From assembly GCA_021650895.1 (NCBI GenBank), contig CP091278.1:835659-899658 (forward strand): DNA of 64,000 nt. The letters are read 5' to 3'. This document shows positions 24,478 to 28,165 of the stretch, one piece after another. How positions within the stretch are numbered: position 1 is the first letter of the stretch; every line of letters starts with the position of its first letter. The translations under genes were made by a program, and so were the position numbers. The stretch is from Candidatus Jettenia sp. Lineage in GTDB: Bacteria > Planctomycetota > Brocadiia > Brocadiales > Brocadiaceae. Under the pieces are notes generated by a model. The model saw only the letters and a list, made by a program, of their open reading frames with translations. It did no database searches and was not told where the DNA came from.

Positions 24478-25958
24478 TTATAATTTCACGGTTAATCCCT
24501 GAGCCATCTTAATTTCCATAGCATGGTTAACTGTCCAGGCCGTGCGATGCGTCACCACATCAATGAGTGTGCTGCCCGATGGCAATCCCGTTCCACTCTT
24601 TTTAACACCGCCAAAGGGTAAATGCACCTCTGCCCCGATGGTAGGCAAATTCACATAGCCAAGTCCGTATTCACAATCTTCCCGGATCCTTCTCGCCTTT
24701 CGATAATCTTCGGTAATTACGGCACAGGTAAGACCATAACCGGTATCATTATGAACCTCTATAGCCTCGTCAACATCTTTTACCGGAATAATGGCAACAT
24801 GTGGTCCGAAAACCTCCTCACGGAGTACACGGCTTTTCGGATTATTCTGCATGCGATATACAAAGGGAGACATAAAATAACCCTTTTTATACGGATTGTC
24901 CATAAGCCTTCCACCATCCAACAACACCTTTGCACCCTCTTTTTTAGCAAGTTCGTTGTATTGCGCAATCTTTTCCGTTGCTGCCTGATTGATTACAGGG
25001 CCCATAAATACAGATTCATCCAGAGGATCACCGATCTTTATCCTCTTTGTTATTTCAATAAACCTCTTTTCAAATTCCGTAAACACCTTCTCATGTACAA
25101 TTAACCGGCTTGCAGAGGTGCATCGCTGCCCTGAGGTCTTAAAGGCACTGATAACAGCCGCATTCACAGCAATATCCAGGCTGGCATCATCGAGCACAAT
25201 AAGTGCATTTTTCCTCCCATCTCGCAGGCAGCCATTTTATTATCAAACCCGGCGACAGTCCTCTTTATTTCTGCTCCCACAGCATTAGAACCAACGAACA
25301 GCACGACATGGGTATCCGGATGTTTCACTAACAGGTCTCCACAACTCCCATGTATGATATTAATCACACCTGGTGGGAAACCAGCCTTATGGGCATATTC
25401 GGCAATCACATTACCTACGCATGCCGTTTCCCGGGAAGGCTTAAGAATAACCGTATTCCCTTCCACTACCGATGGACAAACCAGCCACAGGGGAACAGCA
25501 AAAGGAAAATTCCATGCGGTAATCGCCGCAACAACCCCCTTTGGCTTTCTGCGCATGAAGGAATCTTTTTCCGGAATTTCCGAGTCAACCACATCACCAT
25601 GAGGCATCCTTACCGTGCCAAATACATATTGGGCCATGTGGATACCTTCTGTTACATCAGCACGGCTTTCTATGATTCCTTTTCCACACTCTTTTGCCAT
25701 TAAGCGGGCAATCTCTTCCCAATCTCTCTTAATCAACTGGGTAAACTCATCAAGATACTCACCCCGTTTAATCCGTGATAAATGCCTCCAGCTATCGTAA
25801 GCTGTTTGTGCAGCATTGACGGCATCATTTACATCCTTTTCAGATGAAAGCGGAAATGTCCCCAGCACTTCGTCAAAGTTAGCGGGACTCCTGCTCTCAA
25901 ACCGTTCACCAGAGGCCCCATCAACAAATGTCCCATTAATATAATTTTTCCCTTCCAT
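24478..25958 (-). pseudogene. Aldehyde dehydrogenase, split by one frameshift
   Basis: An NAD(P)-dependent aldehyde dehydrogenase. The upstream frame starts at ATG 25958 (aaaggagg upstream) with MEGKNYINGTFVDG and continues through WNFPFAVP and FVGSNAVGAEI to the Glu of EMGGK. There the frame ends wrongly in MHLLCSMM. One extra A in the A5 run (T5 at 25208-25212) would restore KNALIVLDDASLD and lead into the second frame with catalytic Cys in SGQRCTSASRL, EEVFGPHVAI and LPFGGVKKSGTG. The repaired protein is about 494 residues, normal for the family. Sequence suggests the semialdehyde or KGSADH-type branch; substrate unknown. A homopolymer indel makes sequence error likely. Confidence 0.85.
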
Positions 25959-26019
25959 GATCCTTTGAACCTCCTTTTGCGGTATTTGTAGAGGATTTAT
26001 TTTACATCTGAAATAATAA

Positions 26020-26087
26020 GCCACGAAAGCACGAAGACTCGAAGAAATATTTTTCTTTGTGCCTTAGTACCTTAGTGTCTTTGTGGC
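26020..26087. repeat. gccac-ended inverted repeat
   Basis: Left arm gccacgaaagcacgaagac and right arm gtaccttagtgtctttgtggc form an imperfect hairpin just upstream of the dehydrogenase. Related sequences occur at 28082-28128 and 63013-63238, so this is a dispersed family. Confidence 0.6.
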
Positions 26088-26232: not shown

Positions 26233-26502
26233 TCAATCACTCCTACCTTTTGCCTTGACGACCTTAATCTCTTCTTCGGTTAGTTCATACAGATTGCAAA
26301 CTGTTTCATCTATTAACTCGTCCGTTGCTTTCATTCTTGCTTTTAATGGTTCAAGGGTGAACTTGCTTTTCGTATAGTAGCGTTCAAGGAATTTCTATAT
26401 CTTTCGGTCTGATGGGTCTAAGGATGTTTTGTTTTTATTTTTCCAGAGAAGTTCAGGGAATTGATTAAAAGTTGGATGAAGCACACTCAACAAAAAAGAC
26501 AT
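26233..26502 (-). pseudogene. Decayed C-terminal tail of a restriction-modification methylase
   Basis: Read on the minus strand from ATG 26502, one frame gives HPTFNQFPELLW, then an in-frame TAG (near 26395), then KFLERYYTKSKFTLEPLKARM, TDELIDETV and NLYELTEEEIKVV to a TGA at 26235. The ending with LTEEEIKVV resembles the C-termini of large adenine-specific type II restriction-methylases, whose last helices typically read Y-LYGLTEEEI. Only about 90 codons remain, with a stop inside, so this is a remnant. It abuts the integron-like region. Confidence 0.6.
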
Positions 26503-26531
26503 TAACGGATTTGCTCCGCTTAACCCATCCT

Positions 26532-26592
26532 GATTAACGCCTGAGTTAAGCCGCGCCGCGAAGCGGCGTCGGCTTGAATGAATTGTTAGGGC
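26532..26592 (-). other. attC: Integron attC recombination site
   Basis: Read on the minus strand, the site starts with core gccctaac, has paired inner boxes aagccg / cggctt, a GC-rich loop stem cgccgc / gcggcg, and ends ggcgttaatc. Overall it closely resembles attC sites of mobile integron cassettes. The terminal core gttaatc deviates from the gttrrry consensus. It follows the ridA stop by 20 bases, exactly where a cassette's attC belongs. Confidence 0.85.
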
Positions 26593-26611
26593 TCATGGTG
26601 AGTCAGACCCA

Positions 26612-27034
26612 TTAAGCCTCGTCCGCAATGATTACCGTAACGCGTATCTCAACACGCATATTTGGTTCACCGAGCGAGGTAACCCCAATGCATGTCCAAA
26701 TGGGTGCCCGTGCTCCCATATATTTCCTGAATTGATCTGTCATTGTGGAGATATGCTCCTCCCCAATGGAATCTGGCGCGGTAGGTACATGATAGGAATT
26801 TACGTGAACAACGTCCTTCCATGAGGCTCCAGCCAAAGCAAGTGTGCGCTCTACATTCTCAAACGCCTGGACAATCTGTTCTTTGATTGAGTTTGGAAAC
26901 TCATAATCATTGTTCCATCCTCCTTGCCCAGAAATCTCGACTCGATTTCCAATTTTTACGGCTTGTGAGTAATGGAATTTCTCCAGGTTCCTGTCGCCAT
27001 AACCTGGCGTAACAAAAAACTCGACTTTGCTCAT
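26612..27034 (-). CDS. RidA/YjgF-family protein in an integron cassette
   Basis: A 140-residue member of the RidA (YjgF/YER057c/UK114) family, whose best-known members hydrolyse reactive enamine/imine intermediates. Family features: SQAVKIGNRVEISGQGGW near residues 24-43, QIVQAFENVERTLALAGASWKDVV (54-77), and EPNMRVEIRVTVI near the end. The Arg that RidA proper uses just before the VEI strand is not seen at the equivalent place (CIGVTSLGEPNMRVEI), so it probably belongs to a Rid subgroup with another activity. The start has aaggagg 8 bases upstream. The gene lies between two attC sites, forming a complete cassette of about 535 bp (26538-27072). Confidence 0.88.
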   Translation of the reverse strand: MSKVEFFVTPGYGDRNLEKFHYSQAVKIGNRVEISGQGGWNNDYEFPNSIKEQIVQAFENVERTLALAGASWKDVVHVNSYHVPTAPDSIGEEHISTMTDQFRKYMGARAPIWTCIGVTSLGEPNMRVEIRVTVIIADEA

Positions 27035-27065
27035 GCCAAATCCTCCTTCGTGATATGCGGGGTGA

Positions 27066-27127
27066 GCCCTAACGCCAAAAATCAGCCGCCACGATTTTTG
27101 TGGTCGGCTGCATTTTTCTTGTTAGGC
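27066..27127 (-). other. attC: Integron attC recombination site
   Basis: On the minus strand it begins gcctaac and ends gttagggc, with paired boxes aaaaat / attttt, cagccg / cggctg and ccac / gtgg. These are the R and L boxes of an attC. The recombination point (g^ttaggg) falls 38 bases before the ridA start. It belongs to the preceding cassette that holds the 27397-27176 gene. Confidence 0.88.
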
Positions 27128-27175
27128 ATTCTTTATTATTGTCAAATAAAATGACCATATAGCTGCTTAAGCAAG

Positions 27176-27397
27176 TTAATGGGTTGCAATGTATTCCCTA
27201 AGAACCTTATTGACTGATTCCGAATCCGGGAAATGTTTTTTTACATCAGGATCGAGCATTATTGATCCGTCTTTTTCGGTAAAAAAATGAGTTTCGACCG
27301 ATCCATCTTTTTTGTTAATCTTCACAGTATGTCCCTTTCGATAAGCTTTATAATGTTTTCCTTGGATTCCCAATGAAAAATCATACACTTTTTTCAT
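27176..27397 (-). CDS. Small hypothetical protein, likely a cassette gene
   Basis: The frame ends 49 bases before the attC at 27127, so it is probably the gene of the upstream cassette. From ATG 27397 it encodes 73 residues with a beta-rich core (KHYKAYRKGHTVKINKKDGS, VETHFFTEKDGSIML) and a helical end (SESVNKVLREYI). The frame is open up to a TTG at 27529, which would add 44 Lys-rich residues; the ATG has gaag at suitable spacing and is preferred. No family recognised. Confidence 0.55.
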   Translation of the reverse strand: MKKVYDFSLGIQGKHYKAYRKGHTVKINKKDGSVETHFFTEKDGSIMLDPDVKKHFPDSESVNKVLREYIATH

Positions 27398-28165
27398 TTT
27401 ATTCACTTCTTTATTGTTTTCGCTTTTTTTCATAAGGCAGACTGTTTTCTTCTGTATAAGAAGTTGTCGTTTCTTCTCATGTTTTGCTCTAAGTACTATA
27501 GTATCAAACCTTTCCTTAGTTTTGCTCAAGTTACCGATCCCGGCTTATACAGACTGTATAAGCCAGATCAAAGCCTATCAACGGGGCTTCGGACACTGTG
27601 ACCTCTTTTGTTCAAGACATGGGTATAGATCATCGTCGTACTTAAGAGATGATAGAAGGTTGCTTTTTTCTTAAGATTGAGTATTAATAAAACAAAAACG
27701 AAGAAAATTACAAGCTTTTTTTAGTAAAATTGAAAAATCAAAGGGAAGAAAAATGGAACTTGGAAGATTCATATTTGTAAAATGATGTCGTACTTTACAA
27801 ACATGGTTTACTCCTGCCAAGAAACAAAAATATGGTATTTTACTTTATTTTATGTATTTCTTTTTTCGATTATTTCTGATATTTTGTATAAAACTCTTTA
27901 CAAAGAATTTCGTTTGTTATAAATATCATAGCGCAGCAAAGCTGTAACCAAAAATAGCTTAACTACAAAGCACACAAAGTTTTACACAAAGAATACAAAG
28001 AAAAACTTGCAAAAAAAAGAAGTTTTTACAGGATAATACTATAAAGCCCCATAATTAAATTAGGCTTTTGATAACTTTTATGCCACAAAGTCACAAAGAG
28101 AAACTTCGTGCCTTAGTGACTTTGTGGCTATTTCAAACTTCTTAAATGTTAAAATAGCTAAAATT
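27398..28165. other. Region between the cassette gene and tsaB
   Basis: Holds a perfect 11-bp inverted repeat (ggcttatacag a ctgtataagcc, 27542-27564) at the upstream end of the cassette frame, then about 500 AT-rich bases without a supported gene, and the gccac-family hairpin at 28082-28128. No integrase or attI site is seen. Confidence 0.45.
28082..28128. repeat. gccacaaag hairpin upstream of tsaB
   Basis: Perfect 13-bp arms gccacaaagtcac / gtgactttgtggc with a 21-base loop containing cttcgtgccttag. It shares its ends and loop wording with the repeat at 26020-26087. It lies 38 bases before tsaB and could affect its leader RNA. Confidence 0.65.

What the first reader, a model, noticed from the sequence alone, without database searches (positions are those of the whole stretch)
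26532..27529. Integron gene cassette with two attC sites and no integrase in view
Two 61-62 bp sites with inverse cores (gccctaac / gcctaac) and paired inner boxes sit at 26532-26592 and 27066-27127, in the same orientation. Between them lies a ridA-type gene whose start is 38 bases from the core and whose stop is 20 bases from the next attC: a textbook cassette. A second gene ends 49 bases before the upstream attC. Integrons and their attC clusters are unusual in planctomycetes. It may be a cluster of attC sites lacking an integrase. The GC-rich attC at 26532 contrasts with the AT-rich host.
Basis: partly seen in the sequence, partly recalled or inferred. Interest (0 to 1): 0.8.

Follow-up and report, generated by a model that had tools for sequence, protein, structure and literature searches.

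The report
Two-cassette integron with integrase deleted
An ammonium-oxidising (anammox) bacterium carries two genuine integron gene cassettes, next to the last 25 codons of the deleted integrase that once managed them; similar integrase-less docking sites are scattered through its relatives, which makes this small remnant more interesting than it looks.

Summary
The two attC sites are real: a covariance model built without them scores 49.1 and 47.4 bits (E 1e-9 and 3e-9 in 64 kb). Four corrections follow. (1) There are two cassettes, not one. The Rid cassette ends in an attC 87-90% identical to three aadA/aadB-type attCs of mobile integrons. The other carries an orphan antitoxin whose relatives are all paired with a BrnT toxin; here the toxin is missing. 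(2) The integrase is in view: 27571-27642 (minus) encodes the last 24-25 residues of an IntI (STTMIYTHVLNKRGHSVRSPVDRL*). It is followed by the first half of attI and preceded by the region that lies 5' of intI in relatives, so intI was deleted in place. (3) Integrons are common in this family (Brocadiaceae): 14 of 33 genomes hold an IntI above the curated cut-off. This genome holds only fragments. (4) attI-like copies outnumber intact integrases (about 97 places, up to 8 per genome). One intI deletion joint is shared by 13-14 attI platforms, in two genera, that hold different cassettes. The window itself is a decayed chromosomal integron of the inverted (Treponema/Kuenenia) kind. The family-wide scatter of integrase-less attI platforms is the new and testable part.

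The parts
27646..27759 (-). region that lies 5' of intI in relatives (left end of the integron segment, ~27759-27763)
   Evidence: 77% to L097 (G017:C21) from 27759 to 27649 and to L105/L109 at 27721-27647, where intI follows; host flank shared with G016/G017 ends at 27763-27773
27568..27645 (-). intI 3' stub: last 24-25 codons with catalytic Tyr and stop; rest of intI deleted at about 27645-27647
   Evidence: STTMIYTHVLNKRGHSVRSPVDRL; TIGR02249 positions 292-315, E 9.9e-5; 84% to residues 290-314 of the intact IntI of L098
27434..27567 (-). attI, upstream part: palindrome GGCTTATACAGTCTGTATAAGCC (27542-27564) and conserved tract; downstream palindrome and GTT recombination point lost
   Evidence: alignment with loci where it follows intI and ends in ATTGTT; TATACAGWCTGTATA occurs once in the 3.82-Mb genome, here
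27176..27433 (-). cassette 1 gene: orphan antitoxin of a BrnT-type toxin-antitoxin pair (85 aa); toxin gene missing
   Evidence: homologues in 19 of 33 family genomes at E<=0.01; all 8 full-length homologue loci read have a BrnT end upstream; BrnT PF04365 E 1e-29 on two of them
27067..27127 (-). attC of cassette 1 (Brocadiaceae-like type)
   Evidence: 47.4 bits; up to 82% to attCs of other family members; fold
26612..27034 (-). cassette 2 gene: Rid (YjgF/UK114) family protein, nearest solved relative YjgH
   Evidence: PF01042 E 7e-24; 1pf5 YjgH E 1.7e-11; homologues in cassettes of L014, L015, L097
26532..26592 (-). attC of cassette 2 ('Xanthomonadales-like', aadA/aadB type); end of array
   Evidence: 49.1 bits; 87-90% to three aadB/aac/aadA-type attCs; thousands of plasmid matches

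Best explanation
The segment 27759-26532 (minus strand) is a decayed chromosomal integron of the inverted type, in which intI is transcribed toward attI and the cassettes. In-place deletions removed intI except its last 24-25 codons, and removed the attI crossover point together with the brnT toxin of the first cassette. What is left is half an attI, an orphan BrnT-family antitoxin, its attC, a Rid cassette and a terminal attC. The cassettes were captured by IntI when the platform was whole (inferred). They are now fixed, because no intact IntI was found in this genome (shown at the sequence level). Any movement would need an integrase supplied in trans and would be handicapped by the weak R'/R'' pairing of the last attC (inferred).
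For: attC model scores and folds. IntI stub with the IntI-type VRSPxD end. Sequence 5' of intI, stub and attI are collinear with the homologous parts of intact or longer loci. The same order and orientation (intI-attI-cassettes) holds in relatives. Rid homologues are cassettes elsewhere: first cassette at this attI in G017 (L097), second after an intI remnant in B. pituitae (L014), and at another attI in B. carolinensis (L015). Antitoxin relatives have BrnT upstream and several have attC downstream. No hit to TIGR02249 above cut-off in the genome. ALDH and TsaB are directly adjacent in G021 and separated by other islands in G016/G017, so the locus is an insertion hotspot.
Against: The stub alone is short (24 codons), and its identity rests on collinearity with relatives as much as on its own score. 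The attI crossover point is missing, so the exact first junction cannot be seen. Recombination was not tested. The only second copy of the locus (L013, 100% identical) is probably from the same species, so the order of deletions cannot be dated.
Confidence: 0.9

Rival explanations
1. The window's element belongs to a family of integrase-less (non-autonomous) attI platforms that spread or were served in trans after losing intI, rather than being private decay of one integron.
For: One deletion joint (..GATTGTCTTCGCC|AAAGACGTCAGC..) is shared by 13-14 loci in two genera, mostly without shared neighbouring genes in the stretches compared, and with different first cassettes where these can be read. 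About 97 attI-like places against 17 IntI matches over cut-off listed as full or nearly so. The window's own joint lies within a few bases of those of G019 and G020 at other loci, with alignments that cross it.
Against: In a tree of stub plus attI the window groups with G017 of its own genus (91/93), not with G019/G020, so its deletion may be separate. Some type-1 pairs do share neighbours (G006/G010b, G010a/G012). No mobility mechanism or target duplication was found.
Confidence: 0.4
2. A CALIN that never had a local integrase: cassettes inserted singly at secondary (non-attI) sites.
For: Solitary attC hits are scattered over this and other genomes.
Against: intI stub and attI tract lie directly upstream, in register.
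Confidence: 0.04
3. Not attC sites: chance or ordinary (terminator, REP-like) hairpins.
For: Hairpins are frequent in intergenic DNA; a common repeat (26478-26531) abuts the last attC.
Against: Model E-values of 1e-9, sequence identity to known cassette attCs, gene-attC-gene-attC layout.
Confidence: 0.01
4. Recent arrival of a clinical class 1 integron cassette.
For: The last attC is 87-90% identical to three aadB/aac/aadA-type attCs.
Against: The plasmid matches listed for the cassette region cover only the attC or the rid gene, with no record covering 80% of the query. The first attC and the stub are of Brocadiaceae type. The rid gene is 84-85% identical (protein) to Brocadia cassettes that carry another attC.
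Confidence: 0.03

Closest known systems
Inverted-integrase chromosomal integrons (Treponema denticola; IntI clade with Kuenenia and Blastopirellula)
   Same: intI transcribed toward attI, same direction as cassettes (PMC3607928)
   Different: intI reduced to its 3' end here; attI of two TATACAGWCTGTATA palindromes about 134 bp apart in relatives, a layout I did not find described
CALIN (cluster of attC sites lacking an integron integrase)
   Same: two attC sites about 0.5 kb apart, no functional intI
   Different: intI stub and half an attI are still attached, so its origin as a complete integron is visible
Mobile class 1 integron cassettes (aadA, aadB)
   Same: last attC is of the same 'Xanthomonadales-like' type, 87-90% identical to three of them
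   Different: different gene, different integrase lineage, chromosomal, anammox host
Toxin-antitoxin cassettes of sedentary chromosomal integrons
   Same: cassette 1 appears to descend from a BrnT/antitoxin pair
   Different: toxin gene lost, so no longer able to stabilise the array (inferred)

Membership tests
Integron (complete) | intact intI with the IntI-specific domain | tested here: not met
   only residues 290-314 remain here; no match above cut-off in the genome
Integron (complete) | attI with recombination point | tested here: not met
   upstream part present, GTT crossover and second palindrome absent
Integron (complete) | cassettes bounded by attC sites in one orientation | tested here: met
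CALIN | two or more attC within about 4 kb and no functional intI | tested here: met
   IntegronFinder itself not run
Inverted-type integron | intI co-oriented with cassettes, attI 3' of intI | tested here: met
   stub, attI and both genes on the minus strand in that order; same in relatives
Mobile class 1 integron | class 1 platform or known class 1 cassette | tested here: not met
   listed plasmid matches cover only the attC or the rid gene, and none covers 80% of the cassette region; stub and attI match Brocadiaceae
RidA (2-iminobutanoate/2-iminopropanoate deaminase) | family model score and the catalytic Arg near position 105 | tested here: not met
   42.6 bits against a cut-off of 106 for TIGR00004; YjgH is the nearest solved relative and W-T stands at the Arg position by eye. 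Rid superfamily membership is met
BrnT-type toxin-antitoxin pair | antitoxin directly downstream of brnT | tested here: not met
   homologues are paired with BrnT, the window's copy is not; Pfam has no significant hit for the antitoxin
attC recombination site | IntI recombines the folded bottom strand | not testable with these tools
   needs an assay

The most novel reading that the evidence does not exclude
Brocadiaceae use a dispersed integron: many chromosomal attI docking platforms whose intI was deleted once (or a few times) and which kept capturing and exchanging cassettes with an integrase acting in trans. They behave like non-autonomous elements, and the window is one such platform in a lineage that has since lost the integrase.
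Probability: 0.35. Interest if true: 0.72.

Novelty: new member of a known kind. Interest (0 to 1): 0.45.

Why it matters
As a locus it documents how an integron dies: integrase, crossover point and toxin go; antitoxin and payload stay. The wider result matters more. In anammox bacteria attI copies outnumber intact integrases, and one intI deletion joint is shared by over a dozen platforms holding unrelated cassettes; if that deletion happened once, an integrase must have worked in trans afterwards. That would extend the rule of one integrase, one attI, one array, and it is directly testable. An aadA-type attC in an anammox planctomycete also adds to the taxa that share the attC type behind many resistance cassettes.

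Tried and rejected
Rfam scan: only a tRNA; it gave no attC match. RYYYAAC count in the window is below chance and useless alone. First scans by box rules gave false hits and missed the 26532 site because its R' box deviates; the covariance model replaced them. Secondary-site insertion for the lone rid cassette of B. carolinensis: the left flank matched many loci up to ..AACATAGTTA, some beside intI genes, so that flank looks like a second attI type, not a random site. attC around alphaproteobacterial rid homologues: none. Promoter scan of the window: no more sites than shuffles. Type-2 joint as one event with G019/G020: not supported by the tree. Literature: no paper found on anammox integrons beyond intI surveys; no description of integrase-less attI platforms found; the library is open-access only.

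Full report
Setting. The window lies in a 3.82-Mb single-contig genome (G000, 835659-899658) of the family that includes Candidatus Brocadia; 33 family genomes are held, and G016 and G017 are of the same genus. A 3,163-base contig labelled Brocadia sp. MAG_8 (L013, = G009:C124) is 100% identical to this locus. G009 has its own, 78% identical aldehyde dehydrogenase elsewhere, so that contig is probably mis-binned DNA of the window's own species.

The observation. On the minus strand the order is: stub of intI (27645-27568), half an attI (27567-27434), antitoxin gene (27433-27176), attC (27127-27067), rid gene (27034-26612), attC (26592-26532). Both attCs pass a covariance model made from 15 attCs of class 1 integrons and of other Brocadiaceae loci, with the window's own left out: 49.1 and 47.4 bits, E 1e-9 and 2.7e-9. 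They are the best two hits in the genome. Bottom-strand folds give hairpins better than shuffles (z -2.9 and -5.9).

The integrase. A profile for integron integrases finds no match above its cut-off in G000. The matches include XerC/D-like genes, an N-terminal IntI fragment (3626172-3626597), a C-terminal one (1581219-1581353) and a 24-residue match at 863229-863300, which is window 27571-27642. Translated, this is STTMIYTHVLNKRGHSVRSPVDRL followed by a stop; it aligns with residues 290-314 of the intact IntI of L098 at 84%. Sequence just upstream (27759-27647) matches what lies 5' of the intI remnant in L097 and, over a shorter stretch, 5' of intI in L105 and L109; sequence just downstream matches what follows intI in many loci. 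So intI was deleted in place.

The attI. Downstream of intI in relatives there is a conserved tract of about 170 bp with two copies of TATACAGWCTGTATA, usually 133-136 bp apart where both are present, the second followed by ATCATTGTT, after which sequences diverge (GTTAGGC, GTTCGGC, GTTATGT and so on). That is the behaviour expected of an attI crossover point. The palindrome occurs once in G000, at window 27546-27560. The window keeps the first palindrome and loses homology just before the second, where the antitoxin's start codon begins. G017 has a rid gene as first cassette at this same attI, behind a broken intI.

The cassettes. The 85-aa gene has no significant Pfam hit, but all 8 full-length homologue loci read have the end of a BrnT toxin gene directly upstream, confirmed by PF04365 at E 1e-29 for two of them, and several have an attC directly downstream. 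The window lacks the toxin. This is read as a TA cassette that lost its toxin in the deletion that also removed the attI crossover (inferred). The rid gene belongs to the Rid superfamily but scores below the cut-off of the RidA-type model and is nearest to YjgH among solved proteins, so it should not be called ridA. Its homologues in B. pituitae and B. carolinensis (84-85% identical) are also cassettes, and DNA similarity runs from the cassette boundary to about 14 bases short of the stop and then ends: their attC is a different one. Gene and attC have therefore probably been re-paired at least once.

The attC types. The last attC is 87-90% identical to three attCs of mobile integrons (aadB, aac(6')-II and aadA neighbours) and at most 79% to the other family attCs compared; the first attC is up to 82% identical to other family attCs. 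Ghaly et al. (PMC8352920) place aadA/aadB attCs in a 'Xanthomonadales-like' group found almost only in Xanthomonadales. Finding one in an anammox bacterium is a small new data point; direction of transfer is not shown.

Surroundings. The segment sits between TsaB and an aldehyde dehydrogenase. In G021 these genes are directly adjacent (about 80 bp between the matches); in G016 about 11 kb with a type I restriction-modification system lie between them, and G017 has similar genes at its contig end. The locus is an insertion hotspot. The end of the array abuts a common hairpin repeat (26478-26531).

The family picture. Fourteen of 33 genomes hold an IntI above cut-off, often beside several fragments; attC-like hits occur in all 33; attI-like matches number about 97 in 27 genomes, up to 8 each. 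Among loci with an intI stub, 13-14 share one joint (..CTCTGATTGTCTTCGCC|AAAGACGTCAGC..), in genera g3 and g11, two copies each in G010, G011 and G031. Most have no shared genes in the upstream stretches compared, a few do. Where a first cassette can be read it differs from locus to locus with no DNA similarity, and six of these units have an attC about 0.5-1.1 kb further on. If the deletion happened once, cassettes were exchanged afterwards, which needs an integrase in trans. The window's joint lies at nearly the same place as those of G019 and G020 and alignments cross it, but the tree of stub plus attI puts the window with G017, so separate deletions are not excluded. The type-1 joint also leaves TTGACA-16 bp-GATAAT upstream of the stub (read by eye), a possible cassette promoter; untested.

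What is known. Planctomycete integrons, and a Kuenenia intI clustering with the inverted Treponema type, are published (PMC2426708, PMC8352920, PMC3607928). Inverted orientation in Treponema is described in PMC3607928. I found no description of integrons in Brocadia-like anammox bacteria or of dispersed integrase-less attI platforms, but the library holds open-access papers only.

Verdict. Shown: two attC-bounded cassettes, an intI stub, a partial attI, no intact IntI found in the genome, widespread integrons in the family. Inferred: order of deletions, past capture by IntI, present immobility. Open: whether the integrase-less platforms of the family are decayed copies or working docking sites.

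Noticed in passing
window 24478-26024 (-): The aldehyde dehydrogenase gene is split into two overlapping frames (286 and 239 aa) although G016 has it whole (493 aa): a frameshift near 25200-25230, either decay or a sequencing error.
   Followed up: partly
L098, L099, L101, L105, L109, L177 and others; window 27542-27564: Palindrome TATACAGWCTGTATA in pairs about 134 bp apart marks attI of inverted integrons across Brocadiaceae; binding partner unknown.
   Followed up: yes
L175, L193-L200, L202, L203, L208, L215: Thirteen to fourteen integrase-less attI platforms share one intI deletion joint and carry a TTGACA-16-GATAAT promoter-like pair just upstream.
   Followed up: partly
L209 (G020:C1:3072000-3090000): Four attI-like copies in the same orientation within about 8 kb, with only one attC-model hit nearby.
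   Followed up: partly
L015/G003:C95, G006:C1:652641, G012:C335, G022:C1:1563553: A second attI-like type (..CTTGTTAATAACATAG|TT) near intI, divergent from it in G006 and G012, occurs in many copies; so the family has at least two integron lineages. The B. carolinensis rid cassette sits at one of them.
   Followed up: partly
window 27921-28045: About 120-bp repeat found in many copies in Brocadiaceae genomes.
   Followed up: no
window 26478-26531: Common hairpin repeat (AGGATGGGTTAAGCGGAGC..) directly abutting the last attC.
   Followed up: partly
L013 / G009:C124: Contig in a Brocadia MAG that is 100% identical to the window's locus and probably mis-binned.
   Followed up: partly
L094 (G016:C4:764500-779000): Type I restriction-modification island of about 11 kb at the same ALDH-TsaB site in a sister species: an insertion hotspot.
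   Followed up: partly
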